Source of the DNA: Casuarius casuarius
Taxonomy: Eukaryota > Chordata > Aves > Casuariiformes > Casuariidae
DNA: 64,000 nucleotides
NCBI GenBank assembly: GCA_003342895.1
Contig: PTFA01000011.1
Span: forward strand, 7,093,081 to 7,157,080
Direction: 5' to 3'
The notes under the pieces are model-generated. The model did not search any database. It saw only the letters and a program-made list of their open reading frames with translations, and was not told the DNA's origin. Every line of letters begins with the position of its first letter. Position 1 is the stretch's first letter. The translations under genes were made by a program, and so were the position numbers. Shown here one piece after another: positions 7,179-63,905 of this stretch.

Positions 7179-10100
7179 GTAAGACAAATGTGAAGGATGA
7201 TGTGTTCCAAGAAGAATGCATCTGTTAAAGGCATTTTGATTACAGAGCTTGCACACACACATTCATTAGAAAATAAGGCAGTAGACTGTCCTTCCTAAAA
7301 TATCAATGGCACAATAACATTGATTTTTCTATACAGTCAAATAAGTTGTAGGCTTTAACAGGTCTGTTAGTGAGAAGAGGTGCACTAGGGTAATCGATAC
7401 TTGATTTTCATTGAGAAACCATTGTATGCTAGAGTCAAAGGTAAAAGAGAGAGGAAAAAAATGGTGTGCATCCTGCAAATACTGCAGAGCCACCACAATG
7501 CCTTAACCAAGTATCTTGGGGTCATGGTCTGTCAAAATAGAGCAGTTTTTGGGTTGTGATAGGAATGGCTGTAAGTATAGTACATTATAGAATCAAGTAT
7601 ATCTGTTCTTGAAAGTAGCTTCTGGCTACCTCTAGCATTTTCAGCAGGGCTGTGTGGTTCAGAGGTCTTTCAATGCACAGCAGTATTACCATGAGAACGT
7701 CTTGCAAGATCTGGTAATCCTGCAAGTTGGGCATTCACTGGAATAGAAGGCAAACTCCCTCCTCTTGCCTTTTGAAGATTGTTCAGAATTTTCATTTTGA
7801 AGGAACACAGGCAACTCATCACATTTTTTTTAATGGTACATTTCTCTGCATAAGTAATGTAAGTGATCTTTGTGAATTATTGTTTTGCTATGAATGACTT
7901 AAATGCAACAAGAACTGTGTGAGAATGTGTATGGATTAGGGTGGGAGGGGGATGGATTTAATTACTTGCTTTTAAGATGTAGGCTAATTATTACAGATTT
8001 CTTATGCTACTAAGAAATCTGTAAAATCACAGCTATAAACACCTGTGTCTATCCCCAGGAAGTATTAATTTGCCCTCTTTTCTTGGAAATTAAAAAACTT
8101 GAAAAGGAATAATGGTAGGCAATGCACTTTTGGGTAAGTTTTCATAGCTGCAGCAAGCATCCAATATGTGTGCTCATGCACAAACTTACCTAGTGAATAT
8201 ATTTAATTTTGAATGTGCATTTACCTGTTTTTGCCCTATTAAACAAAATCCTAGAGATTATATCTAAAAGGTAGATAAAGATTAAATTCCAGCTTCTTTA
8301 ACAAAATGCTAGTTGTTGCTCTTTCTCTGCTTACGTTCACTGAGAGTTCAACTGGGAGCTGGAGAGATTCTTAGATGAGTGAATCATAACTAGAACAGAC
8401 AAGAAATATTGCAGCAACATGGCCCTATGAAAATCCATATATATGTAACAGAAATATGTCCTAGAGTTATATACCACGTATAAGAGCTTTATTAAGCCAA
8501 TGGAGTTCTAAATCTCGTAATGATTTACTGACTTTTCCTATCCCAAACATTTTCGGTTGCAATCTCTTTTGTACTATCCTTACTTTGTGTGAGTGGAGAG
8601 AAGAGGAAAGGAATGTGAAAAACATTGCTATAAAGAAAAGATAAATAAACCTTTTCTTTCCTAAGGAAAAGAAAAAAAGTCAAATAAAGGAGAAATATAC
8701 ACAGAAAACTTATTTTGCTTATATAATTTTGGACAGCTGAAAGATTATTTTATTTTCTTTTTCTCTGCCGGATGTCTTTTCACATGTGACCCATACAGGA
8801 AAACTCATTGAATTCCACCTCATCATTGCATTGTGTTAAGAGGAACTAGTATTTGTTCAAAAAAAAAAAGTTTGGGTGAACTTACACTATTCCAGTACCA
8901 ACGTAAAATGAATTGATTTCACTGCGAATTCGTTCTGAGGACACAAAATCCTTTAACAGCTTCAGTCTCAAGAGTAGCAGAACAGTCACCAATATCTTTG
9001 CCTGATACTTTTGACAAAGGAAAAATATTAAGGGTTTCACCAGGCAACAAAAAGAGAGTCTGTCGAGTGATTTTCTTCCTTGACAAGAATTCAGACTCAG
9101 AGCAGGAAAGGAGACTTTTTCTAACTAGAGCAGGTCTTTTAAGCAGAGGAGTACAGCTAGCAATTCTCTTTCTTGCCATGCTCAGTGCCCTTTAGGCTAA
9201 CAAACTACATTTCTTTCTGGACACTGAAGTGGTAGGCGAGTTATCAGAAAAGGTGGAGCAAGTGAATTTGTCGTTTTAATGGGAGACTGCTTTGCTGTAA
9301 GTACGTTATACACTAGTTTGCCAATTGTATTCCACTACAGTTAATTTAATACTGCCATATGCAGTGACAGGGCTGGGAGGGAAGCTGTTCATTCCAGTTA
9401 GAGCTGGCTATTGAAAAGTACTGCTTTCCAACTCCATCCTTTCTGCTGGGGGCTGCACTGCCACCACTTGCTGGGGGGAAGCTTGTTCTCCCACTGCCAT
9501 CTCAGGCCCTGACCAAGGTCCCATCTCCATGGAGAAGAGGAGCAATACCTGTCCAGATAACTCTGTGGCTGCCTCTTGAGCCATTTATTTAAACACTCTT
9601 TTAGCAGCTCACCCATGTATGATAGTAACTGGGTTTTATGATGAAGTATGTATCAAATCTGAAAAGTAGGCTGCTTTGTGCACTCATATTGCCTTCATCA
9701 TTGTTTTGATGGCTGTGTCTTAGGATTCAAAGTCTGTTTTTATTTACAGTGCTGTGGATCCAGAGTGACTTCACTGAGATGCATTAGGTGTGCATTGCAT
9801 GGTAAAATTTATCTGAAAGGTTGAAATAAAATGCATTAACAACAAATAGCTGTAATATATTTGGTTAGCTGGACCATCGCATGAGTTGTTATTAGCTGAT
9901 TCTTTCTCTTCTTTGGAGTACATGTAGTGCATAATGAGGTGCAGAGGGAAGACACGGCAACTATTCTCAAGGGATTTATGTAAATAAGAAGTATTTGTAC
10001 TTTCCTCAGCAATATCAAATTTCTGAGCAAAATGTTTCAAAAAAAGAAAAATCCGGGGAAATGGTGCATAAAATGTGCATGAATCAGGTCCTAACTCTGT

Positions 10101-10789
10101 AATCTAACTCTTGGGGAACAATTAAGGCATTACAAAGTCTCAAGGCATTTATCTGTCATTTTTACTGGGACAAGGGGAATTAAAAAAAACCTAATGGAAA
10201 TCTTAATTATACATACCTAATTATGAAAATTTCACAGAGTAGAAGTGCAGAAATGGAAAGCTTCCTAACACTAATAACACTGCTTCCCTGTTGGAATCCT
10301 TCTCTAATCTTCTATATGGAAAGGAAGTGTAAATTAAAACACACCATTGCGGTTCTGTGAGGAGGATTTTACTAGGAGGTAAATGCCCTTGCTAATACAG
10401 GAATCAAACACAACACACCTTCTTTAATTGTAGAAATTTAGAAGTGTGTGTATATGGAGCGTATGCATATACATATTTGCAGGAATCAAATAAGCCGCAA
10501 ATTACAGTATTACCCTATAACTTAGAGTAAGATCCTGCCTCAGCTGTAATCATAATCTTAAGAGTTCAGACAGGTTTTGTTTTTAACTCGTCTGTATAAT
10601 CCAAAAGATATTGAGTCCGCAGCCGTGGGATCCTGAGAGAGAGAATGCATAGTGCAAGGTCTAGGAATATTGAAGAAGAGGTAGGATACTGACTGGAGGA
10701 TATAAACTGAGTTAAGTTGGGAGGGACCAAGCCAGCGGAGCCATTTATAGCGACACGAAGCAAAGGGTGGTGGGAGGGGACATAAAAAA
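7179..10789. other. Unassigned AT-rich sequence
   Basis: No gene recognised. At about 8919-9195 there are overlapping open frames on both strands in a more complex patch, without convincing splice sites. At 9230-9296 a 67-nt segment is open and ends at GTAAGT, but its acceptor is weak. Confidence 0.5.
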
Positions 10790-11126
10790 GACTTTGAAAG
10801 TGAGGAAGCCCTTTGCCTCTGTGGCTCCCATCCCCTCCTCTCCCCACGGTCAGGCTCAGCCTGGGTCCCCAGGGCTGGAGGTAAACCCGCATGTGCCATG
10901 GGGTAGGGGAGCAGGGCAGCAGCCACCATGGGGGCCGGGCAGCCCCCAGTGGCTCCCCTTGGCCGGGAAAGGCAATGCTGGGGCAGAGGGTGTTGGAGAG
11001 GCCGAGCCAGGGAGCAGTGAGGTCAGCCTGGGGGACAGGCTGGCTACAGCGGTGAATGAGGCTATATGGCACCGGGGTGGTCGTTGGCGAGCCAGGCCCA
11101 GCTGCTATGCAGGTAGTTGGGGGTAA
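10790..11126. other. GC-rich segment, about 340 bp
   Basis: An abrupt rise in GC content, with about nine CpGs by eye, between AT-rich flanks. Open frames run on both strands, as expected from the lack of AT-rich stop codons, and give Pro/Gly/Ala-rich translations with no recognisable domain. It lies about 0.7 kb left of the stronger CpG-rich block and could be part of the same regulatory region. No splice or promoter element is clear. Confidence 0.4.
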
Positions 11127-11794
11127 AACGTGTCTGTGGTTGGTTTGTTTTTTTCTGGGGAAGATAAGTTGATAAAGAAAAGGGTTGCCAAATTCATCTT
11201 AATTAATGCTACAAAGCACGAATGCATCATGCCTCTTTGAAAAGTGTACAGCCAAGAAGAATAGGATAAAATCCTGGTCTTGGTGTAATGTTTCCATTTT
11301 TAGCAGAATAAAAGCNAGCTAAAAAAAAACCCTATTAAAATGGTATTTGCATTGCCAGTCCTCTGTTCATGCGGATAATATAATTTCACTATGGGCCTCG
11401 TTCCTTACTTCGTGAACATCCAGAATTCCCAGCAGAAATAATTAATGTGCATGGGATGCACATTTTACCTTTGTAAAATCTTCTGGCTCTTTTTGGTTTC
11501 AGGGATTGGATTACGGAAGAAACATTTCATCAGTACTAAGCCTCCATTTATTCCTCTCAATTATAAGTACTTAAATGAGGCATTTATGTTAAGCACCTCA
11601 CTCCCCCCTTCGGTAATCACAGGCAGAGCACGTGCCCTCCACAAATCATGGTTATCTGACTGCGAGCAGAGCTTACAACAACAAAGCTCCCGAGTTGCCT
11701 AAATTCGGGTTGGATGTCCGCAAGCGAGTTGCTGTGCATGGATTTGTGGAAATGCAAGTCAGAAAAGAGCGCTGAGATCAACTGCAGCCGCCCT

Positions 11795-11833
11795 ATTTTA
11801 TTTTATTTTATTTATTTTAGTTATTTACTTAAT
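11795..11833. repeat. Degenerate (TTTTA)n low-complexity tract
   Basis: Repeats of ATTTT/TTTTA directly left of the CpG-rich block. Simple-sequence expansion. Confidence 0.8.
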
Positions 11834-11849
11834 TTTTTTGCCTGGGTGT

Positions 11850-12580
11850 AGTAGCTGGCCTGAGAGCGCAGCATCTCCGGCCTTGCCCAGGCCGGCCATG
11901 GCCCATACTGGTTTTAACTTAAGACTTGTCAGTGGTGAGCAAGTCATGGCTGGGGCGAAGGGGCTGAAGCCCCGGCCACCCCTGTGGGGCAAACAGCCGC
12001 CCGGGGGCAGCATTCCCCTGCCACTGGGGGCAGGCGGGGTAGGAAAACTTCCCCCCAAAAGGCCAGGGCAGACCCCAGCCCCGTGAGGAGGCACCTCCTC
12101 AGGGAGGCCAGAGGCAGCACTGCACGCTAGGCCCGGCCTGCGGCAGAGGGGCGGTGCTTGACAGGGCTGGCTCAGCCGCAAAAGGTGCTTTTTTTTTTTT
12201 TTTCTTTTGACATAACTGTTTTAACTGTACCTTTACTGAGGCTCTTCTGTGTGAGATCATTAATTTCAGTAACTGCATCCTCGCTTGGGCACAGCGGGGT
12301 GCATGCCGACTCGGCCGCAGCGAGACAGCGTGCATTGCAGGGCCCGCGTTTTGGGAGCGCCGTGTGCAGTCGGGGGCTGCCGGCAGTTTGAAACGACCAA
12401 GATTTGGAGGCTGGCAGGGGACGAGGCCTGAGCCCCAGAAAATCAGCCTTGTTTAAGGGCTTTGCCATTTGGTGTGCGGCCTCACTAGTTTTGGCCTTTT
12501 CTTCAGCGACCTAGCACGACGCTGAGTAAGCATTTCATCTCGGGCATTGCGTTGGGAGGGAGACTCGGAGACTTGTATTT
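11850..12580. promoter_or_regulatory. CpG-rich block, candidate CpG-island promoter
   Basis: By eye there are about 14 CpGs in 11850-12180 and about 22 in 12280-12580, against almost none in the flanking AT-rich kilobases. The block contains an Sp1-like GGGGCGG near 12149 and several GCG/CGC words, and is split by a 15-nt T run at 12189-12203. An ATG at 11898 sits in near-ideal Kozak context (GGCCATGG) and runs 12 codons plus one nucleotide to a GTGAGC donor at 11935. That would suit a short first coding exon on the + strand, but this is speculative. Vertebrate CpG islands usually mark promoters. No downstream gene is firmly identified, so it could also be an orphan island or a noncoding-RNA promoter. 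Direction is unknown. Confidence 0.45.
12189..12203. repeat. Poly(T) tract inside the CpG-rich block
   Basis: Uninterrupted T run flanked by GC-rich sequence; simple repeat. Confidence 0.8.
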
Positions 12581-13417
12581 TGGAGAGGGGATTTTACTGT
12601 GATTTACTGCTGCTTTTGGCATGCAGACGGTGGGAACATATGGCTCTGAATGTCTTAAAGTTAATTCACTGTGTCACCTAACCTCCGCCGCTCCTGTTGG
12701 GAAAAGCTATCAAGCCTTTATCTGGTAGGATTTAAATGTGAAACACGTAAAAGACATTTCAGAAAACACATAAAATACCTTTCCAGATGAACTTTAAATC
12801 TGGTAAGATCTATTTAATAGTGTGTGTAACTGAGAACAAAAGACCTTCTGATAAAGAACTGGTTTAAGAAACAAAATTAATACTTTTCCTAAAAGAACTG
12901 GATAAACAGTTATTCTTACTAAGACAGTCTATGGCATGAAACCTTTATCACATCAAACAGTAATGAAGTATGGCATATAAATCCTCAGCCATTTTAAATG
13001 GTAACTCTGAAAATGAAGCATTACTGATATCTTTGACAAGCAAAATATATGGAGTAAAAAGAGATGTAGCAAATAGATAAGCTATTTATTTTTACTGACC
13101 CCAGTCAATCTTGTGCTTGTTTTTAAAATATTTTACTGGTCAACATGCCACAGGATATGTCATTCATTAGATCTGTCAGAAGCAGCAGCCTGGGTAAATA
13201 GATGGGGAGGATTTGTTGAACTCTGTGAAAGGTAGAAATGGTGATAATGCTGCTGGAAAACGAAGCAACAGTATCTAAAAATTGCCTTTTGCCTGTGTGC
13301 CAGAGATGTAACAGAGTCTATAACAGGCATGACAAGTATCCTATAAATTAAAATAAAATAAAAAAACACTGGGGTTGTAGAACCTTTTTAGCAGAGTTCA
13401 TATTTAAAGTATGAAGC

Positions 13418-27559: not shown

Positions 27560-27797
27560 AGCTGGCGGGCGATCTCGACAGGCATGTGTTGCTTTCCCTC
27601 TTGGACGGATATTGCCATTGGTAGGCATCGAAGACTATTGATCTCTGTCGCTATCGATCCCCACTGATAGGCACTGATACCTATTAATCTTGACAGGCAG
27701 CTATAACTTTTAGTCTTGTGCCATTTTACCTATTGCAAGGCGTTGACCGATACCAATATTGAAGCTTTCTGCTCTCAGGAGGCATGTCAATTACCAT

Positions 27798-27846
27798 ACC
27801 TGTCGATAAGGATCGAAAGTGATAGGGGTTGATATCTATCAATGCC
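27798..27846 (+). repeat. 49-bp core block, copy 1 of 5
   Basis: Most diverged left copy, ending in ATGCC like the others. It aligns without gaps to the other four copies. It retains CpG in TGTCGATAAGGATCGA. Confidence 0.7.
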
Positions 27847-28007
27847 TATCAATATCGATCCCTGTAAATAGGCGTTGATTCCTCTCAATTTGGACAGATA
27901 CCTGTTGCTTTGGCTGTTGGACCAATTTCACTCTTGATAGGCATGAAAACAGTATCAAAATGGATACATCTAGTTGTCGAGGAACACGACTGATTGTTGA
28001 ACACCAG

Positions 28008-28056
28008 ACCTATCAATAAAGATAGAGAGCAATAGGGATCTATGGCTTTTGATGCC
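28008..28056 (+). repeat. 49-bp core block, copy 2 of 5
   Basis: Starts ACCTATCAATAAAGAT and ends TTTTGATGCC. It has lost CpGs relative to copy 1. Spacing from copy 1 is 210 bp. Confidence 0.7.
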
Positions 28057-28130
28057 TTAACAAAATCAATATATCATCCCTGTTGAAATGGATCCTATCA
28101 ATAGGCATTGATCGGTGCCAGTGGCAAGAG

Positions 28131-28533
28131 GGAGGTCTAGCTTTTGTGGTGGGGGCGATGTTGCTGTTGGTTGGCACCGAGGCCTATCGACATTGACCGT
28201 TTTCGGTGGGGGGGGAGGGGGCCGTGAGGAGTATTGATTTCCATAGGGATGGCTAGGGCACGCGATCCAGAGATCTGGAGCCCCATCAGTACGTATCAAT
28301 AGGTATTGATCTCGAGGGGAATCTCTGCGTATTGATTTGCATACCTGTGGGTAAGGATGGAGAGTGATGGTGATCAATGGCGTTTGATGCCTGTGAGTCT
28401 TGATGTGTATCGATAGGTATGGACAGGTGTGGATGTGGAGCGGCATGTGCCTGTTTGGTGTGGGGTGGGTTTTGCTCTTGGTAGGCATGTGAGGGGTATT
28501 GTCATGGATTCCTGTTGCTGTGGAAGGGAATGG
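28131..28533 (+). repeat. Left member of an internal ~400-bp direct duplication
   Basis: From GGAGGTCTAG to GGAAGGGAATGG. It aligns along its whole length with 28636-29031 at high identity. Many differences are TG or CA here against CG in the right member (for example GATCAATGG versus GATCGATGG). Confidence 0.85.
28343..28391 (+). repeat. 49-bp core block, copy 3 of 5
   Basis: Starts ACCTGTGGGTAAGGATGG. It lies inside the left member of the 400-bp duplicated segment and has TGATCAATGG where copies 4 and 5 have TGATCGAT. Confidence 0.75.
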
Positions 28534-28552
28534 ATGCCTGTTGGATTCCGCA

Positions 28553-28610
28553 CCTATCGATAGGGATCCATATCGATAGGGAACGATAGTTATCGATCCC
28601 TATCGATAGG
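28553..28610. repeat. Cluster of perfect palindromes around TATCGATA
   Basis: Contains CCTATCGATAGG, a perfect 12-bp palindrome, at 28553-28564 and again at 28599-28610. Another TATCGATA lies at 28571-28578, and ATCGATAGGG/CCCTATCGAT form facing inverted arms. It lies between the two members of the 400-bp duplication, in the spacer that is not duplicated. Confidence 0.8.
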
Positions 28611-28635
28611 CAGTGCTAGCGTTGGATGTGGAGAG

Positions 28636-29031
28636 GGAGGTCTAGGTTTTGTTGTGGGGGTGATGTTGCTGTTGGTCAGCATGGAGGACTATTGACATTG
28701 ACCGTTCTCGGTGGGGGGGGGCCATGAGGAGTACTGATTTCCATAGGGATGGCTAGGGCACGCCATCCAGAGATCTGGAGCCCCATCGGTACGTATCGAT
28801 AGCCGTTGATCTCGAGGGGAATCTATATATCGATTTGCATATCTGTGGGTAAGGATGGAGAGCGATGGTGATCGATGGCTTTGGATGCCTGTGAGTCTCG
28901 ATGTGTATCGATAGGTATGGACAGGTGTGGATGTGGAGCGGCATGTGCCTGTTTGGTGCGGGGTGGATTTTGCTCTTGGTAGGTGTATCAGGGGTATCAT
29001 CATGGATTCCTGTTGCTGTGGAAGGGAATGG
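28636..29031 (+). repeat. Right member of an internal ~400-bp direct duplication
   Basis: Same borders as 28131-28533, with an offset of 498-505 bp. The unit period of about 500 bp suggests a higher-order repeat built from smaller ATCGAT-type units. Confidence 0.85.
28841..28889 (+). repeat. 49-bp core block, copy 4 of 5
   Basis: Starts ATCTGTGGGTAAGGATGG, inside the right member of the duplicated segment. Spacing from copy 3 is 498 bp. It retains ATCGAT. Confidence 0.75.
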
Positions 29032-29093
29032 AGGGAATGAATGAAGGGTATAGCTCTCCATCTCGATGGTAATCGCTGCGTATCGATTTGCAT

Positions 29094-29142
29094 ACCTGTG
29101 GGTAAGAATGGAGAGCGATGGTGATCGATAGCTTTTGATGCC
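29094..29142 (+). repeat. 49-bp core block, copy 5 of 5
   Basis: Starts ACCTGTGGGTAAGAATGG and is nearly identical to copy 4. Spacing from copy 4 is 253 bp. The array fades out about 60 bp further right. Confidence 0.75.
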
Positions 29143-29205
29143 CGTCAGTATTGATCTTTATCAATAGGCATTGATACATGTGGATTTTGACAGTCATTTC
29201 AAGTT

Positions 29206-32039
29206 TTGTTTTTTGCTTTTAAGTTAATGATTTTTTATTTAAAGAGCCTGTTATGTTGTTCCTTTTTTTGATTAATAATGTGAATTAGAAGGTCCATTTT
29301 TGTTGCCTTCGAGTTTTACATTCGTTCAGGACCTTTCTCCTTTCAGATTTTAAGGATTGGTTTTTACAGGCATTCCATATCTATACTTAGGATTATCTTT
29401 AAAAGGGTATCGTAGCATGCCTTTCATTGAAAATATAGCTGCAGGTGTCTCATCTATCCTTTGAATACGCAGTATTTATTGCATTTATCATTATAGTTTC
29501 TGAATATTGTTTAAGGATTCAAAATAGAAGGTATGTTTAGTCCTGGAGTATTTTATCAACACAGGTAGAATTTGACATTTCAGCAAGGCTGGATAGTAAA
29601 CTAAAGAGGAAGAATTCTAAGAGTTCATGCAGTCATCTACACATCAAAACCAGAATCCTTAAAATGGATTTGACAGGTAGTAGGAACCCATGTAGTTGTA
29701 GAGCCCTGGTGTAATGTACTTGCTTGCATCTTCTTCTAATAATAAGAATCATCAGAAATTCAGAATGGATTTCTTTTATTGCTCAAAAATGCTTTTAACT
29801 AAAAAATACATCATTATGTAAAACATATTCTGCAGTAAATTAGAATTTTTTTTTACAGTTACAGGACTATTTTGTGCATTACAAACATCACCAGTATAAA
29901 CAACTTCAGATTATTTCATGCATTTTTCACTTTTTGATGAGTTTATGTGAGAGATATCCAGAGTTGTTTAATAACTGCACATAAATTCTTGTTTAGATTT
30001 AGGCAGAGAGAACTCGTAGTAGCTCAATACAATTGTTGTTATGTGCTTGTTCTTTATTAAGAGGATTCAGGGAAGACTCTAAGCTTAAGAGTGAAAAGCT
30101 CACCAGCTTTTAAAAAAGAGCAGTCTTACCTCTCACATTTCTTCTGTCTTCCCTGGATTTCACTGCAGACCTCCCTGCTTTCATCTAGCTCCTTGTCTCT
30201 ATGGTATTCTCATTGGTATCCTCAGTGACTGGANATGTATATGGAGCTGCACTGCAGACCACCCCATCTTATTTTCAAAATGTTGCGTATGCATGTCTGC
30301 AGGGAGAGTTGCGATAGCATTGAACCCTAAAGAAACTTGTTTGTCATTCGGGTTATGTGCTTAGGGTGCAAAACTTGCCGATCATTAATTTTTGGGACTA
30401 TTTCAAAAGGAATAATTGATGGCAAGCTCAGTGTTAGCCAGAACACATTATGTATGCCACTTCAGCAATATCATACATGGATATTTGGGGGGTTTTTTGC
30501 TCCAAGGTTACACTGGTAGCCAGTCTGCTTTGGCTGATGGGCAGAGTTGAGCTAACAAACCATAACGATATTAAACAACAGTCAGAAGCCAGACTAGGAA
30601 GGACAAAGAATTTTTCTAGAAACAAGTTATTGTTGGTATGAGGCTGATATTATCAACCAAGCAGTGCAAACANTGAAAAGGTTTGAGAGTTAGGTGGGTT
30701 GAGAGCAGGATAATCTATTGCAGTTTTCAGCATTCCTTAAAAGAGTGAGTGAATCTGTATGGTCATTTGAGTTTCAATCTGTTGAAGCAAATCTACCCAC
30801 TGCAAAGTGTTCACATTGCGGAACAGTCTCCCAGGGCATGAAAGCATGAACTCGTTTTTTTCCAGATGAAACCACAGCAGCAGATGCCCGCTAGGAGCGT
30901 GCCTAGTATCTTCCAGCTATTACTAGGCATGTGGCCCACAAAGCCAGAGTAGGGCTAGGCTGAAATAAAACCTCTTGAAATACAAATGAGAATGAAGTCT
31001 GGTTGTCAGCACAGCTGTTTTGCTCCTCAGATCTGCTTCATATGAGCTGCACTACTCATGAATATAAGCATAGCCAGTGACTTTTTCTGTGTGTAGGATA
31101 GTGCACAGTTTATTTCTGTGTATGTTCAGTACGTGTATGTTTAATAACTGGCAGAGCTGTCTGCTGTAGGTAATTGAAAATCTGACAGAACTACTTGCAT
31201 GGACACTGCAATAACCTTTCCCTAGGACTTAGAGAATTTTCTGTTAGTGGGTCTGGTAGTGGAACTAGTAGCGAGTGATGCAAGAATTTCTCAGGACTCC
31301 TGAGAGTCCACTTGTGACAGTCCCCCCAGACTGCCCATAGCTTTGCATGCAGCTTTTTCCTAAAGGATCCTTTTCTCCAATTTTATCTGCAGTTCAACAA
31401 CTTTCAGTGAATGTCTGTCTGGGTTGTAATAGCCCCTACACAGTTTCTTCAGGGTTCTTAAGAAAATCTCTCCCTTTCCATGATACAAGACCTGACTGTG
31501 GACTGGCTCTCAGAAAGCTCCTCAACTTATACTGCATTCATAACACCCATGTGTTTACTAGTTCTCACATGCCTGTGCTTGAATATAGCAAGAGAATCAG
31601 CTAGGAGAGATATAACAGTTGTCACAGCAGTTTCCAGGCCTCTTCAGGGAATTTCTTCCACATGCNTCTTCCATAGGGATCATCTTCCTTCAGGGAACTT
31701 CTGGCAGCTTTTTGCTGCTGGTGAGGACTGGCTTCTGGAAGCTTTTGCTTCTGTCAGCTCTGAGAGTGAGCTTATGTTGACAGTTCCCTGATTTGGGGGT
31801 GCCTACAACTCGTTTCCAACTGGCTGCTGCTCAGACACTGTCAAGCACCTATTCAGCTGGTGTGTGGGGAGCAGTTATATAATTAGTGAGCAGGAGTGCA
31901 GATCCTGGAGTGCTGCAGTTCCTGCAGTTGTTAGTGCAGAGGGGCCTAGAAACTCTGCTGAAGACAGTGTGGGACTGCTTGAGCCTGCTCAACAATGGTG
32001 TCAGCTTGCCACAGGGCACAATCTCCAGCACCAGCAGGA
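29206..32039. other. Unassigned sequence
   Basis: AT-rich to about 31.3 kb with no recognisable gene. From about 31.35 kb it becomes more balanced in composition, with open frames on both strands, and could be the 5' end of the CR1 relic that follows or another decayed element. I cannot assign it. Confidence 0.45.
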
Positions 32040-40377: not shown

Positions 40378-42540
40378 GGATCACAGAACATTTGAGGTTG
40401 GAAGGGACCTCTGGAAATCATCTAGTCTAACCCTTCTGCTCAAGCAGGGTCACTTACAGCAGGTTGCCCAGCACCCTGTCCAGATGGCTTTTGAATATCT
40501 CAAAGGATGGAGACTCCACAACCTCTAGGCAATCTGTTCCAGTGCTCAGTCACCCTCACAAGAAAAAAAGGTGGNTTTTTTGTTTTTTATTTTTTTTAAT
40601 ATATGTTCAGATGGAACTTCCTGTGTTTCAGCTTGTGCCTGTTGCCTCTTGTCCTGTCACTGGACACCACTGAAAAGAGTCTGGCTGCCTCCTCTTTACA
40701 CCCTCTCTTCAGAGGCTTATATGCATTGGTAAGATCCCCCCTCAGTCTTCCCTGCTCTCAGCCTTTCCTCATATGAGAGATGCTCCAGTCCCCTCATCAT
40801 CTTAGTAGCACTTTGCTGGACTGGCTCCAGTAGCTCCATGTTTCTCTTATACTGAGAAGCCCAGAACTGGACACAGTACTCCAGATGCAGCCTCACCAGG
40901 GCTGATTAGAGGGGCAGGATCGCCTCCCTTTTCCTGCTGGCTGTGCTCTTCCTAACACAGGCCAGAATACCATTCGCCGTTTTGACCACAAGAGCACCTT
41001 GCTGGCTCATGGTCAATCTGTTGTCCACCAGGACTCCCAGGTCTGTCTCTGCAGAGCTGCTTTCCAGCAGGTCAATCCTCAGCCTTTACTGGTACATGGG
41101 GTTATTCTTTCCCGAGTACAGGACTCAATGAGGTTCCCTCTGCCCATCTCTGCAGCCTAAGTCCCTCTGAATGGCAGCACAGCTCTCTGGGGTATCGGGT
41201 ACTCCTCCCAGTTTTGTATCATCAGCAAACTTGCTGAGAGTGCACTCTGTCCCTTCATCCAGATCACTGATGAACAAGTAGAACAGGATTGGCCTCAGTA
41301 TTGACCCCTGGGGGACACTGCTAGCTATAGGCTTCCAACTGAACTTTATGCTNCTGATCACAACCCTCTGAGGTTGTCCTTTTGTTGTCCTTGTTGTCCT
41401 TGACATCCCTTGCCAGAATAAACTGCAGATGGGCCTTGGCCTTTCTAGTTCCATCCCTGCATCCTCAAACAATGTCCCTGTATTACTCCCAGGTTACCTG
41501 TCCCTGCTTCCATCTTCTGTATACTTCGTTCTTCTGTTTGAGTTTTGCCAGGAGCTCCTCATTCATCTGTGCAGGTCTCCTGCCCCCTTTGCTTGACTTC
41601 TTGCTCATTGGGATGAACTGTTCTTTAGCTTAGATGAGGTCATCGTTGAATAGCAATGAGCTTTCTTGGATACCTCTTCCTTCTAGGGCCCTGTCCCATG
41701 GGATTCTTCCAAGCATGTCCCTGAAGAGGCTAAAATCTTCCTCCTAAAATCCAGGGTTGTGATCCTGTTTTTCATTTTGCTCCCGTCTCAGGATTCTGAA
41801 CTCCACCATCTCATGATCACTGCAGCCAAGGTTGCCCCCAACCTTCACATCTCCAACCAGCCCTTCTTCGTTTGTAAGTATGAGGTCCAGCAGAGCATTT
41901 CTTCTTGCTGTCTCCTCTATCACCTGTGTCAGAAAGCTGTCATCAGTGCTCTCCAGGAACCTTCTGGATTGTTTACGCCTTGCTCCATTGTCCCTCTAGC
42001 AGATATCGGGGTGGTTGAAGTCCCTCATTGGGACCAGGCCCTGCAAATGTAAGCCTACTTCCAGCTGTCTGTAGAAGTCCTTACCTACTTCCTGATCAGG
42101 TGGCCTGTAGCAAACACCCACAACAGTATGACCTGTGCTAGTCTGCCCCTTAGTCTTTACCCACAAGCTCTCAGGCAGCCCCTAGGCTGTTTACCCCTAG
42201 GCAGAGCTACATGTGTTCCAGCTGCCCTTTTGCACAAAGGGCAGCTCCTCCTCCTCACCTTCCTGGCCTGTCCTTCCTAAAGAGCCTGCATCTGTCCATT
42301 GCAGTCACTTATGTGTCAATTATGTGCATACAGTAAAGCAAAAGAATGTTACTGCTGTTGATACTTAAGGGGGCAGCAATTTCCTCCTGCTCTTCAATAC
42401 TGAGGATCTCCAGCTCTTCAGCTAGACAACTGCCTCGTCTCGTCCTTCTACTGATGGGCAGTTCCTTAGCACCTGAGCCCCTTCTGCAGTGCTCCCTGCT
42501 TTTCCCCCCCCCCCTTCACTGCAAAAGCACAGCAACTGGC
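40378..42540 (-). mobile_element. CR1 LINE copy on the - strand with an internal ORF2 deletion
   Basis: The 3' end lies at the left: the + strand starts GGATCACAGAACATTTGAGG, the antisense form of the conserved avian CR1 terminus. Reading on the - strand from the right, one meets the endonuclease region (GVCYRPPDQE; GDFN mutated to RDFN; SDHEMVE intact near 41803-41823). Next is the linker to about 41395, then a jump straight into the reverse transcriptase ([21 protein letters not shown] near 41206-41232 with both catalytic Asp retained), and last the 3' UTR. Compared with the copy at 53.9 kb, about 750 bp between linker and mid-RT is missing at about 41350-41395. A T-rich tract with an N interrupts the 3' region at 40555-40605. 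Frames are broken, so the copy is inactive. Confidence 0.85.
41125..41352 (-). pseudogene. CR1 reverse-transcriptase fragment retaining the FADD motif
   Basis: A - strand open segment with [12 protein letters not shown], then [12 protein letters not shown], the palm catalytic motif of non-LTR reverse transcriptases, and DLDEGTECT between them. It is flanked upstream by the deletion junction and an N at about 41353. Part of the LINE copy, not a host gene. Downstream the frame enters the region after RT and is lost. Confidence 0.75.
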
Positions 42541-45500: not shown

Positions 45501-48500
45501 CAGGTTAGCTTTTCCTGAAAAAGGAGGAAATAACTCTCATACCCCTGCCCCTTATATTATGAACAAACACAACTTCATTAGCTCACACTCTAGATGAGTG
45601 GGAGAGAATTTAAAATCTGAAGAGTCAAGTTTCCTTGACTTATTTCCCTTCTTGATGTATGACCTTCAGTATCAGTCAAGTCAGTATCAATCAGTCAGTA
45701 TCAAGTTGCTCATTTCTACTACAGAAGAAAGAAATAGTAGAAATCACTAGACTTTTTGGTTGAAGCTGAGCAGATAGTAATGCTTGAGGCAATAAAGTTT
45801 TCTGAAACAGAATGATGAGAGTTAGCTGCTACATACAGATGGGCCATGTGTCCGCTTGTGCCAGATCCTGAACTTTTATTGTGATCCTAATGGAGTCAAC
45901 TGAATGTTATCCAAGGACTGGCTTTGGTCCTTTGTGAATGCCTCTTGCTAACTGTTAGTTGTGCAATATCTGGCACGTTTCTACTACTTTCAGCTTGCTC
46001 TGGTTACATAGAGGTAGCCTCAAAGACATTTGGTTGAAAAGAGTTCTCAGTTTAAAAAAAGAAAAAGAGGGGGGAGGGAAGAGGCAGAGGGGACTAAACA
46101 GATGGCTCTTGGCCAGTAGATCAATAGAGAGCATTTCTCTAAAGAAGAATGTGGGTTTTCTGGTATGGACGATGTAGGAGTTTTCTAATACTCTTTTCGA
46201 AATGCACTTTTTTCTTTATTGCTCACATGATGCATAGATTACAGCTAAGTGATTTCAGCTTAGCATGTGTTGGAGGATGGGTTGGTGTTGTGTAAGTGTT
46301 GTGAATTTCTGATAAGTATTTACAAGTCACACTCTGCTTTATGATTTGGTATCCCAGGGTAGTTCATGTAAACAATGTGTAAAATCAGAGATTTCATGTC
46401 CAAGGTGACATAAAATTACTCCTGAACTTGAAGAGTTATTACTAATCACAACAAGTTTTTTTCTGTTTGTTTGTTTCCTGGAAAATTTCCCTGCAGTATG
46501 TATTTCTTTCCAGAAAGCAGATTAGTAAGCTGCCTGCTAAGTACCTTCTGACAGAATGAGAGTGAAGCTTCCAGTAAAAGTGTTGATTTTCTTTCATTGC
46601 CATGTTTGCAAGTATGCATGTAGTAAATGAACTGAATGTGCTTTTAAGGAATCAAGAATAAGCATTTATGAATTTTCCCTAGTGTAATTTTGTTTCTTTG
46701 TTCAATAGTCTTGCCTTCTTCCTTCATATAACTTTTATAACAGAACATTTTCTATGAATGACAAAGCAAATGCTTCCGCTCATTCCCTCTAATCACATCA
46801 ATTTCAAGACATGGGTTAATCAGGCTACAAAAAAGTTCTGGGATAAGTTAGTTTAGAAAAAGAGTAGTCAGTCCATTTCTTCAACCATGGTTCAGTCATA
46901 GTCTCTGAAGGATACCATGACTGTTAACACAGTGATTNTTATGGGCTGAATACATCAGTCTCACCTGTGTAGTTGCACAACATGCGATGACCAAAATATA
47001 CACTACTTTTATATGAAATGTAAGATTCTGTATATGGATTAGAATGCAATTGCATGTGGCAGGAAAGAGTAAAACAAGTTAAGTTTTTTTGCTAGGATTT
47101 TGCAGGAGTATTAAATGCTGCCATTAATGGATGATAATAAACTTTCTGCTCAGGAGAATGATTAATTTAGGGCCCAACACTTGATTTAATTATCCTAGTG
47201 GATTCAATGATCTACAAAGGCAGGCATAGGAGATGGTCGCCCAAGGTATTGTGGCAGAAAATATGTAGTATTCAGTACATTAAAGTAGCAGAATATGGCC
47301 ATGACAACCTTAAAGAACTGAAGCAATAGTGACTTCAGAGTTGCATAAAAATCATGCCCTGCTTAGAACCAGGGCTTTTTGTAGCTAATTACTTTCCAAT
47401 GCATTACTGTTTAAGCAAGCCAACAGAGGCATATGAAGCAGTTCTGAAGTAGAGTTTCTGAGAAATCAAAAAAACCATGATAATCCTGGGAAACTGCTTT
47501 TCCTATTGCTTTCACAAATCCATTATTTTGCTTGAATACCAGCCCCTTGAACTGGACCATGTAAAGTGCAAAAATAGAAATGAGACAATTAACTAGTCTG
47601 TGTAATACTTATTCTGGTTTGCAAATATATATAAGTGGATCTATAATATATAATCTAGTAATTTTTTGAAAAGGATATGTCATGCATTGACTAAAGGAAT
47701 TGGTTTTGGGGAGGCAGAAAGTATTTAGACATAGTGGAGCAGGTCAAAATTCTTTCACCTAAGACAAGTCAGAATTTTGATCCAGTGAAAGTAAGTTTTG
47801 TGTTCTGAACTGCTTATCTTATGAAACCTATTTTTGGGGAGTGTGGGGGGACTAAATTCATTTGCTCTTCCTCCTTTCCTTTCCTGTGTTTGAAAAAAGA
47901 GTATGGAAGGTGAAAGCAATAGATTGGGAGAAGTTGGAAGTGATAGGTTTCTGGAAAAGTCTAGCACTCTGATTGTAATAGTTGACTAGGAAAAATGTTT
48001 AAGTACTTCAGGTGCCTAACGTGTTATGAAGAAGAAAATACTTTTTCAATCTGAAGAGGTATAGTACAACTTAAACTTTGTTCAAAAGGTACGTTAGGAG
48101 GTGGGGGAAGCAGATGGGAGATCTTTCATTTTGGAGGGGAGCTACTTTCTTTCCATTTTCTTCCATTTCATTTTACTTGAAAAGCAGGAAAAATAAGAAT
48201 TTGTGACATATTTAGCTACCCAATTAACTCTGAGTTTGTGATACTTCCTGATTGGCCGTTTGTCTACAGAAAAGCCAGGTGGATATAAAGTTTCTGAGTT
48301 GGGGCTATTTCTAATATAAATACATACAGTTCCTAAAATGCTGGCACTCTGATCTCAATAGACTGCTTCAGGGCTAAAACTAGATAGGAAAGAAGAGGTT
48401 TTCAAACTGGCTTTTTTTGTCTTAAGCTTCTCAGGTCAAGCAGTTGCTTATTTGTTTGAGGCATTGACTATTGTTCCCTACCTTCTAGCTCTTTGTTTTT

Positions 48501-59429: not shown

Positions 59430-60415
59430 AATGTCAAAGAACATGAGGCCAACTACCAGCTCTGTAGTGTTTTGCTGAATTAAGTCTTGCACCTTTGAAT
59501 AGAGGAATTAATCGATTTGATTTCTTTAGCAGTCCCTCTGCTTCTGGTTGGCACTCCAGCTTGGCTATCAATATTGGTCTGTCTTGGCTATCAGTATTTG
59601 GTCTGATGTGTCTGACATCTTCAAAAACAAATTTTTTTTCCACATTCTTCTAGGCAGGTCAAAAAGTGGTTCTAAACTCTCCGTCTGAGATCTTAGAAGC
59701 TTTTTAACAAAGTGTTCATGACGCAATCAATTTTCAAGATGTGTGCAGCAAGGCCTCCATATTAAAAAATGCAGATACATAGGCCTCAAGATCCTTGTCC
59801 TTCGGTGGCTCTCCTTTTATCTTATTATCACAGAAACTGTAGCTGATAGTGTTTCATACTGTTTTAATCAAATATCTGGTAGATGGAATGTGAAATGATT
59901 GCTTTGGTTCAAGATATAGGCAAGTATTTCCTCAGTTTCAAATTCTTCTGTCATTCACCATTGAAATCAACAGCTTAGATCTGGTATTTGTATTTTTATC
60001 CAGCACTATGGAAAATACAGCAAAATTTCCTGTGTTCTTTTGAATATAGTTGCAAAGGTCTTCTACACAAGGTGACCCTGTATCATAGATGAACTGATTT
60101 CAATAAATGTAGCTTTATTTCTCAAGAGTAAGATGCCTACAACCTTCAGCATGCAGTCTTGAATTCCTCACTACATGGCTGCTGCTTTTTATTTTTTCCA
60201 GGAACCTTAATACAGCTAGCATGCACAGCAATTTCATTCTTCCTCTGACCAATTTCTTTAAAATAAATCATTAAGCAGCTGTTCTAGTTTGTCCCTAAGG
60301 TAATCACCAAAGATTTTATTGTAGGAATTTTGGTTTGTCATGTAATGGTATGTGATATTGTATTCTTTTGTAATAGCAGTAACTTCTGTACAAATCAGGG
60401 ACTGCACTTTCTTAC
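59430..60415 (-). mobile_element. Degraded hAT-type DNA transposon relic, BED-finger/transposase remnants
   Basis: Read on the - strand from 60415 leftward, a stop-free stretch of about 50 codons contains LICTEVTAITKEYNITYHYM and SYNKIFGDYLRDKLEQL. It resembles the BED zinc finger and following helix of hAT transposases of the Charlie/ZBED/GTF2IRD2 type (one Cys and one His visible, other ligands lost). Further left, broken frames contain CMLKVVGILLLRNKATFIEI (about 60100-60160) and MTEEFETEEILAYI (about 59920-59965), matching the usual downstream order in such transposases. Then the similarity becomes too weak. Many stops and shifts are present. No terminal inverted repeats were found by eye. 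The family call rests on motif memory and order, not on a search. The final open segment at 59434-59643 may or may not belong. Confidence 0.5.
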
Positions 60416-62999: not shown

Positions 63000-63905
63000 T
63001 AGAATGAAGAAGTTCCTGGAAGTGGACAGCAAAAGAAAGATTAAGCTCAGTGGGACAGAAGACCTAGTGACAATGCTGAAAAGGCTGAGGTGCTTGATGG
63101 CATTGCATGGAGTCAACTGGTAATGTCTGTTCTCAGGCTTTCCTGGTCCCTGACCTAGTTGCAGCCTGATAGGATGCTGAGGAGCTGGCTGATGTTGTTG
63201 CAAGGGTGCCCTCTGTCATCTCTGAAAGGTGATGGCAACTGGGAGAGGTTCCTGAGTGCTGAAAATAGATAACTCTCACACTCATCTTCAAAAAAGCATC
63301 CTACTACATCCAGGCATGTGAAGGACAAGGTANCTAGGAACAGCCAGCACAGATTTANCNAGGACAAACTGCTTGACAACACTGATTGCCTTCTGTGATG
63401 AGATGATTGGCTGCGTGGGCAAGGGGGAAGCAGTGCACATTGTTTACCTTGACTTCAACCTGGCTTTCAACATGCTTTCCCATAGCATCCTTATAGTCAA
63501 ATTGCTGACACACAGACTATGCAGGTGGATGGTAGGGGGCCTGGAAAGTTGGGTGGACTGCTGGGCTCCAAGCGCTATAGCCAGTGGTAAAAAGTCCAGC
63601 TGGCTGTCTGTTTCATGTGGTGTCCCTCAAGGGCATATCCTGGGGTCAATACTGTCTAACACTTTCCATTAATGACCCAGACAACGAGGTCAAATGTGTG
63701 CTCAGCAAATTTGTGGACAACCCCAAACGGAGGAGAGCACTTGGTATTCTAGCGGGCAGGGTTATAACCTCATGATAAACCCAGCTTGCTGGTTATATCC
63801 ATCACTGTGTTTTGAGAGAAGTCTCAGAATGCATAGAGTATGGCAACAGGACAGTATGCATTCCAGGTTGTCTATCCAGGAAAAATTGAGAGTGGCAAGT
63901 TAGCT
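63000..63905 (+). mobile_element. CR1 LINE reverse-transcriptase relic, + strand
   Basis: Begins near linker sequence reading AEKAEVL at about 63081 and runs through the RT domain: frame segments FCDEMIGCVGKGEAVHIVYL then DFN, CGVPQGHILGS, and LSKFVDN near 63702-63722. The palm motif FADD has become FVDN, so both the Ala and the second Asp are lost. The first catalytic Asp in YLDF remains. Three N bases at about 63333-63360 and several shifts interrupt it. Both ends are decayed; the CR1 3' terminus is not seen before the window ends. Confidence 0.75.

What the first reader, a model, noticed from the sequence alone, without database searches (positions are those of the whole stretch)
27560..29205. 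Unfamiliar tandem array built on ATCGAT/TATCGATA words
Seen directly: 13 ATCGAT hexamers in about 1.65 kb against two noticed elsewhere in the window, six TATCGATA octamers, and many ATCAAT/ATTGAT variants, in recurring modules. Known: ATCGAT and ATCAAT are recognition cores of CUX and ONECUT homeodomain proteins, and TATCGATA is the DREF element of insects. Inference: either a little-described sauropsid satellite/minisatellite, or an array that gathers such factors.
Basis: partly seen in the sequence, partly recalled or inferred. Interest (0 to 1): 0.8.

Follow-up and report, generated by a model that had tools for sequence, protein, structure and literature searches.

The report
Stray patch of an ATCGAT satellite family
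This 1.6-kb stretch is a worn, isolated copy of a satellite repeat family built from the six-letter word ATCGAT, which is scattered over many places in this probably avian genome and is often found where assembled pieces break off.

Summary
In detail: 13 ATCGAT and 6 TATCGATA in 27560-29205, 2 ATCGAT elsewhere in 64 kb, far above shuffles. It is not a single-locus curiosity. The window's own assembly (1.19 Gb) holds the repeat at 50 or more other places. All 40 that I read match one 453-bp profile, partly by construction. 24 of 51 places lie within 1 kb of a contig end (0.09 expected); 4 of 51 lie within 3 kb of (TTAGGG)4. The window copy is an old interstitial patch. ATCGAT words are not clearly better kept than the rest of the repeat, so a factor-gathering array is not supported. 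I found no printed description in nine searches of an open-access library; Dfam/Repbase and other vertebrate genomes could not be searched. Verdict: an apparently undescribed member of a known kind, dyad-symmetric satellites like those of chicken.

The parts
27561..29197 (.). Whole satellite patch: hexamer (ATCGAT-like) plus optional tetramer register; decoded into 58 units, mostly of 26 or 36 bp
   Evidence: HMM decode and boundaries; log-likelihood gain 345 nats against at most 49 for 24 shuffles and at most 63 for 37 other window segments
27567..27927 (+). Left, most diverged part; pieces match the family higher-order repeat consensus (positions about 70-300), on both strands
27905..28315 (+). 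Higher-order repeat copy, consensus positions 12-393, E 5.6e-73
28307..28448 (+). Continuation of that copy, matching consensus 79-219
28454..28815 (+). Second higher-order repeat copy, consensus positions 17-393, E 1.8e-83
28795..28946 (+). Continuation of the second copy, matching consensus 67-219
28952..29206 (+). Third, truncated copy: pieces 28952-29032 (consensus 17-97) and 29050-29206 (consensus 71-226)
28094..28534 (+). Local duplicate A, 88% identical to 28599-29032
28599..29032 (+). Local duplicate B
28553..28610 (.). Best preserved palindromic stretch with four ATCGAT; can form a long hairpin
   Evidence: self-inverted match 79% over 58 bp; single-strand DNA fold of 28540-28640, z = -4.9, 0 of 200 shuffles as good

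Best explanation
The region is an old, isolated (interstitial) copy of a dispersed satellite DNA family. The family's elementary word is the palindrome ATCGAT, alone or followed by a tetramer, commonest AGGC, ACCT, AGGT, AGGG and GCCT. Words combine into a nearly self-complementary 26-bp unit (hexamer, hexamer, AGGC-like spacer, hexamer, ACCT/AGCT-like spacer), and about 17 units' length makes a 453-bp higher-order repeat whose consensus carries 12 ATCGAT. SHOWN: the register, the higher-order repeat, its copies at 51 places or more in the assembly, the excess at contig ends, and TTAGGG-bearing repeats beside a few loci. INFERRED: the family grows by slippage and unequal exchange between words that stay in 6/10-base register; the longer arrays sit in heterochromatin that the assembly could not cross, some of it subtelomeric or pericentromeric; small pieces were carried into euchromatin by rearrangement or repair insertion (no terminal repeats or target-site duplication of 6 or more exact bases were found at the window copy) and then decayed, partly at CpG. 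The window copy also underwent local duplication of about 500 bp. It most likely has no cellular function of its own at this place.
For: Autocorrelation peaks (z > 4, lags 1-100) only at 4, 6, 10, 16, 20, 26, 30, 36, 42, 46, 52, 56, 62, 72. HMM gain 345 nats against at most 63 in controls. In 33 of 33 arrays of at least 300 bp from other loci, lags 6 and 16 have z > 2 (these arrays were delimited by the same model, so partly by construction). Window query: 65 matches in its own genome, itself included. Query from L017: 127 matches, itself included; non-self up to 92% identity over 78 bp and 88% over 350 bp. One 453-bp profile matches 40 of 40 fetched loci and the window (loci were chosen by similarity). 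A 19-base word with up to 2 mismatches has 174 genome matches against 5 for the reversed control. Contig ends: 24 of 51 loci within 1 kb, 0.09 expected. (TTAGGG)4 within 3 kb at 4 of 51 loci: C462 and C585, C834 and C741. Array on C741 (L033) flanked on both sides by TTAGGG-bearing DNA. In the first 20 loci plus the window copy, masked flanks share nothing at E 1e-5 except the TTAGGG-type repeat of L017/L024 and one 570-bp pair, L015/L020 (the second 20 loci were not compared in this way). No flank-flank repeat at the window copy.
Against: The subtelomeric reading rests on few loci: 47 of 51 show no (TTAGGG)4 in the DNA I read or in the listing, and 32 of 34 listed (TTAGGG)4 clusters have none of the ATCGAT places that I saw listed beside them (one search lists the first 100 of 142 matches; my cluster count). 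At three of the five loci with TTAGGG-bearing repeats (C462, C741, C455) the TTAGGG direction points into the contig, at two (C585, C834) outwards. Contig-end excess can come from assembly breaks alone. Contig-end copies are not clearly younger than interior ones (median non-CpG divergence 0.175, n 18, against 0.191, n 23; p = 0.22). CpG change is not purely C>T/G>A: C>G is frequent as well.
Confidence: 0.85

Rival explanations
1. A functional array that concentrates ATCGAT-binding proteins (CUX, ONECUT or a BED-finger protein like DREF/ZBED1), acting as an enhancer, insulator or sponge.
For: Density of ATCGAT/TATCGATA is extreme. CpG letters inside ATCGAT diverge slightly less than other CpG letters (0.253 against 0.282, 95% interval of the difference 0.001-0.061).
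Against: Non-CpG letters of ATCGAT are not significantly better kept. Intact words in the window are near the number expected from independent decay. Most hexamer slots have lost the word (13 intact of 181 decoded slots).
Confidence: 0.05
2. Internal or subterminal repeats of a DNA transposon (for example a hAT element, whose BED-finger transposase would bind the words), spread by transposition.
For: Dispersed copies in unrelated flanks; BED-finger proteins such as DREF bind TATCGATA (recalled).
Against: No inverted termini or flank-flank match at the window copy, and no shared word of 6 or more bases between its two edges. Copies start and stop at different consensus positions. No Pfam domain in the three frames of at least 75 aa that lie in the array and no protein relative of the longest of them at E <= 1.
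Confidence: 0.06
3. A purely local complex minisatellite that arose once at this locus.
For: The local duplicates of about 500 bp show local growth; no other copy in the 64-kb window.
Against: Long matches on many other contigs and one shared 453-bp higher-order repeat.
Confidence: 0.02

Closest known systems
Chicken CNM 41-bp centromeric repeat
   Same: Short dyad-symmetric unit, forms higher-order repeats, linked to (TTAGGG)n (PMC9974502, passages seen)
   Different: Period 41 against 6/10/26 here (odd lags reach z 3.0 at most). Letters of CNM were not printed in the passages seen, so sequence was not compared. Location at centromeres was not testable here.
Chicken W satellite sate-21 (TTTTCnnnnnGAAAAnnnnnn)
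   Same: Dyad symmetry, divergent higher-order repeats (PMC9974502, passages)
   Different: Its core occurs only once in each of 2 of 59 loci held, so not as an array
PO41 subtelomeric repeat of chicken and quail
   Same: Short tandem repeat near chromosome ends, with inverted tracks (PMC4301066, passages)
   Different: 41-bp period; letters not compared
Insect DREF/BEAF elements (TATCGATA)
   Same: Same octamer (search listing: PMC2605929 and PMC6179265, not read)
   Different: Those are single or dual promoter/insulator sites (recalled), not satellite arrays
(GGATCGATAG)7 array in a Nitrosospira MAG contig (L001)
   Same: Ten-base step with ATCGATAGGG words
   Different: 73 bp, bacterial; judged an independent origin

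Membership tests
Satellite/minisatellite DNA family (dispersed tandem repeat) | Tandem units in register | tested here: met
   33 of 33 other arrays of at least 300 bp (delimited by the same model)
Satellite/minisatellite DNA family (dispersed tandem repeat) | Several loci share one unit | tested here: met
   40 of 40 fetched loci match one profile; 51 loci counted. Loci were found by similarity, so the profile match is partly by construction.
Satellite/minisatellite DNA family (dispersed tandem repeat) | Long arrays that break assemblies, in heterochromatin | tested here: inconclusive
   24 of 51 at contig ends; chromatin not testable; longest array read is 2.5 kb, of a 32-bp variant (L045)
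Subtelomeric / telomere-associated repeat | Next to telomeric (TTAGGG)n at chromosome ends | tested here: inconclusive
   4 of 51 loci near (TTAGGG)4; directions mixed; chromosome ends not identified
CNM / PO41 41-bp repeats | 41-bp period | tested here: not met
   all peaks at even lags; odd lags z 3.0 at most
sate-21 | TTTTCN5GAAAA core in tandem | tested here: not met
DNA transposon (hAT and others) | Terminal inverted repeats and target-site duplication | tested here: not met
   window copy only, (blastn of flanks; exact shared words of 6 or more between the edges); other loci not tested for this
Array of conserved factor-binding sites | Words conserved above the rest of the repeat | tested here: not met
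   for A/T letters; marginal difference for CpG letters
Named Repbase/Dfam family | Match to library consensus | not testable with these tools
   no such library on hand

The most novel reading that the evidence does not exclude
The ATCGAT family is this lineage's counterpart of a centromere or subtelomere satellite: a dyad-symmetric word, kept in strict 6/10-base (about one helical turn) register, recognised by an ATCGAT-binding protein (cut-homeodomain or BED-finger), much as CENP-B recognises its box, with interstitial patches marking former chromosome ends or fusion points. My evidence does not exclude this: about half of the loci are at contig ends, a few sit beside TTAGGG repeats, and the register is kept in every longer array that I read; but no clear conservation of the word itself was seen.
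Probability: 0.07. Interest if true: 0.7.

Novelty: new member of a known kind. Interest (0 to 1): 0.38.

Why it matters
Satellites as diverged as this copy are easily missed (Tandem Repeats Finder reports only one 54-bp piece of this array at score 50). The family gives a probe for parts of this genome that the assembly seems unable to cross, a possible marker of old chromosome ends, and an example of how palindromic short words grow into higher-order repeats. It also warns against reading dense factor-like words as a regulatory array before the rest of the genome is searched.

Tried and rejected
Rfam (gathering threshold) and tRNA scans of the window: nothing. Longest array frame against the protein database: 71 candidates, none at E <= 1. 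Pfam on three array frames: none at E 0.01. Bacterial promoter/terminator scan: near chance and not meaningful here. IMG/VR scans with three patterns: none. GTDB contigs: one bacterial contig with a short array judged unrelated. Transposon reading: rejected for lack of termini at the window copy. My first view (up) was a single-locus minisatellite; one search overturned it. Simple CpG deamination as the sole cause of hexamer change: only partly right, because C>G is also frequent.

Literature: nine searches listed no paper that I could recognise as describing an ATCGAT satellite in a vertebrate. Searches matched 141 and 130 papers, of which 30 and 25 were listed; the other searches were also capped listings where more papers matched. 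PMC4992247, PMC4301066, PMC9974502 and PMC12651973 were seen as passages only; all others as search listings. Supplementary tables, subscription papers, Dfam and Repbase were not searched.

Full report
CHECK. The finding is accurate. ATCGAT occurs 13 times in 27560-29205 and twice elsewhere in the window. TATCGATA occurs 6 times and ATCAAT/ATTGAT 15 times. In 500 dinucleotide shuffles the means are 0.87, 0.06 and 2.63. CpG o/e is 0.68 against 0.14 in the rest of the window. GC skew reaches 0.37 in 28-29 kb.

ANATOMY. Self-matching of bases at a fixed distance exceeds z 4 only at lags 4, 6, 10, 16, 20, 26, 30, 36, 42, 46, 52, 56, 62 and 72 of the first 100: sums or differences of 6 and 10. A model with six hexamer positions and an optional four-base spacer, trained on the array, puts its limits at about 27560 and 29197; 181 hexamers and 118 tetramers cover 1558 of 1637 bases, the other 79 being slips. 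Its gain is 345 nats; the same training gives at most 49 on 24 shuffles and at most 63 on 37 other window segments; started from random instead of ATCGAT, the array still gives 312-332 (4 starts) against at most 49 (12 segments). A 26-state model gives a unit of hexamer, hexamer, AGGC-like spacer, hexamer, ACCT/AGCT-like spacer, with 36-base variants, 58 units in all. The unit is nearly its own reverse complement: a strand-symmetrised model scores 292 on both strands and at best -194 on 37 controls; the unsymmetrised one scores 345 and 131. As single-stranded DNA, 28540-28640 folds with z -4.9 and 27561-28120 with z -2.5, 1 of 100 shuffles as good. About 440 bp is duplicated at 88% (28094-28534 and 28599-29032), with a third partial copy at 29060-29185.

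DECAY. Of 181 decoded hexamer slots 13 are intact ATCGAT; the middle two letters are TG 53, GG 38, CG 34, CA 22. Independent decay of positions predicts 9.4 ATCGAT and 7.4 ATTGAT (observed 13 and 7), but only 2.2 ATCAAT (observed 8). I read ATTGAT and ATCAAT mainly as CpG-changed ATCGAT, not as separately recruited ONECUT words (inference).

THE FAMILY. The window lies at G000:C3:7093081-7157080 in an assembly of 1.194 Gb and 1061 contigs. Searching that assembly with the array gave 65 matches, itself included, and with L017 127 matches, itself included. Grouped, they make 51 loci on 47 contigs, the window included. These counts are lower bounds, as the tool states. I read 40 of the 51 with flanks (L010-L049). 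A further 10 were taken only as short pieces for contig length and not analysed; the last is the window. An iterated profile with a 453-base consensus (12 ATCGAT, CpG o/e 1.18) matches all 40 and the window; since the loci were found by similarity this is partly by construction. My hexamer segmentation found an array of more than 60 bp in 39 of 40; the exception is L038, a 69-bp match. All 33 arrays of at least 300 bp show lags 6 and 16, 30 of 33 lag 10 and 29 of 33 lag 26 (z > 2); they were delimited by the same model, so this too is partly by construction. The 19-base word ATCGATAGGCATCGATATC with up to 2 mismatches has 174 matches, against 5 for the reversed control; the first 100 listed include 25 places (my count) that are not in my 51 and were not read. 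So the family is probably larger than 51 loci.

WHERE. 24 of 51 loci are within 1 kb of a contig end, with 0.09 expected if loci fell at random. Assembly breaks inside long arrays, or real chromosome ends, or both, would give this. TTAGGG-bearing tandem repeats lie beside the arrays at L011 and L017 (periods about 181-213) and L034 (186-222); L033 has DNA 73% like L017's repeat, and L035 a piece 71-73% like those of L011 and L034; L024 has a relative of L017's repeat without tandem TTAGGG; L019 has one pair of TTAGGG. On C741 (L033) the array sits between two such stretches. (TTAGGG)4 occurs 142 times in the genome (reversed control 0). In the first 100, which are all that is listed, I count 34 clusters; two are by an ATCGAT locus (C462, C585). 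Two more (C834 = L011, C741 = L033) are seen in fetched DNA: 4 of 51 loci. With roughly 50 clusters (my estimate) and 10 kb each side I expect about 0.04. Results against a simple subtelomeric reading: most loci have none in what I saw; 32 of the 34 listed clusters have no ATCGAT place beside them in the listings; and the TTAGGG direction points into the contig at C462, C741 and C455 and outwards at C585 and C834. The 64-kb window has no tandem TTAGGG.

AGE. The window copy is among the most diverged: 0.233 at non-CpG letters, rank 37 of 41; range 0.074 to 0.297. Contig-end loci (18) do not differ significantly from interior ones (23): 0.175 against 0.191, p 0.22.

FUNCTION TEST. If proteins kept ATCGAT, its letters should diverge less than the rest. 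Over 40 loci plus the window the A/T letters of ATCGAT diverge 0.174 and other A/T letters 0.186 (difference interval -0.003 to 0.028); CpG letters 0.253 against 0.282 (interval 0.001 to 0.061). The first is no significant difference; the second is marginal and could reflect neighbouring-base effects. The array has no Pfam match in three frames, no protein relative of one frame and no Rfam match at gathering threshold, and the window copy has no transposon-like ends.

WHAT IT IS LIKE. Passages of the complete chicken genome paper (PMC9974502) describe CNM (41 bp) and sate-21 as satellites with dyad symmetry that form higher-order repeats, and centromere cores and the W centromere as linked to (TTAGGG)n. 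This family works like those by anatomy, but is not CNM or PO41 by period or sate-21 by core; letters of CNM and PO41 were not compared. Whether it has a name in Dfam/Repbase is unknown.

CONCLUSION. An apparently undescribed dispersed satellite family, the window copy being an old interstitial relic.

Noticed in passing
window 27622-29206: Relative to the family consensus the window copy has C>G at 0.258 of C and G>C at 0.057 of G on the + strand, while the 40 other loci together are even (0.098 and 0.098); the leftmost piece (27622-27783) shows the opposite (1 C>G, 9 G>C); no CC>GG pairs. Duplicated copies share part of this. Unexplained.
   Followed up: partly
L045 2868-5374 (G000:C591): A related but distinct array with about 32-bp units and 37 ATCGAT in 2.5 kb; it hardly matches the 453-bp profile.
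   Followed up: partly
L017 1-1557, L034 1-1584, L011 1670-2400, L033: Telomere-derived tandem repeats of about 180-220 bp with short TTAGGG runs; L017 and L033 are related at 73%, L011 and L034 at 68%.
   Followed up: partly
window 10001-13000: GC 0.44-0.49 and 14, 26 and 34 CpG per kb, against 0-10 in the other kilobases outside the array: a possible CpG island or gene start.
   Followed up: no
window 41125-41493 (-) and 63322-63672 (+): Reverse-transcriptase-like frames, below the Pfam gathering score; recalled as CR1-like.
   Followed up: no
window, 24 places: Isolated single N letters scattered over the window.
   Followed up: no
L001 2134-2206: A short (GGATCGATAG)7 array in a Nitrosospira MAG contig, the only hit of a 10-step ATCGAT pattern in the genome-contig collection.
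   Followed up: yes
window 45666-45704 and 59560-59605: Two tiny tandem repeats containing TATCAAT/TATCAGT; neither stretch scores as an array member with the trained model.
   Followed up: partly
G000:C170:7995-9469: Seven close matches to the 19-base ATCGAT word in 1.5 kb, a further array that I did not read.
   Followed up: no
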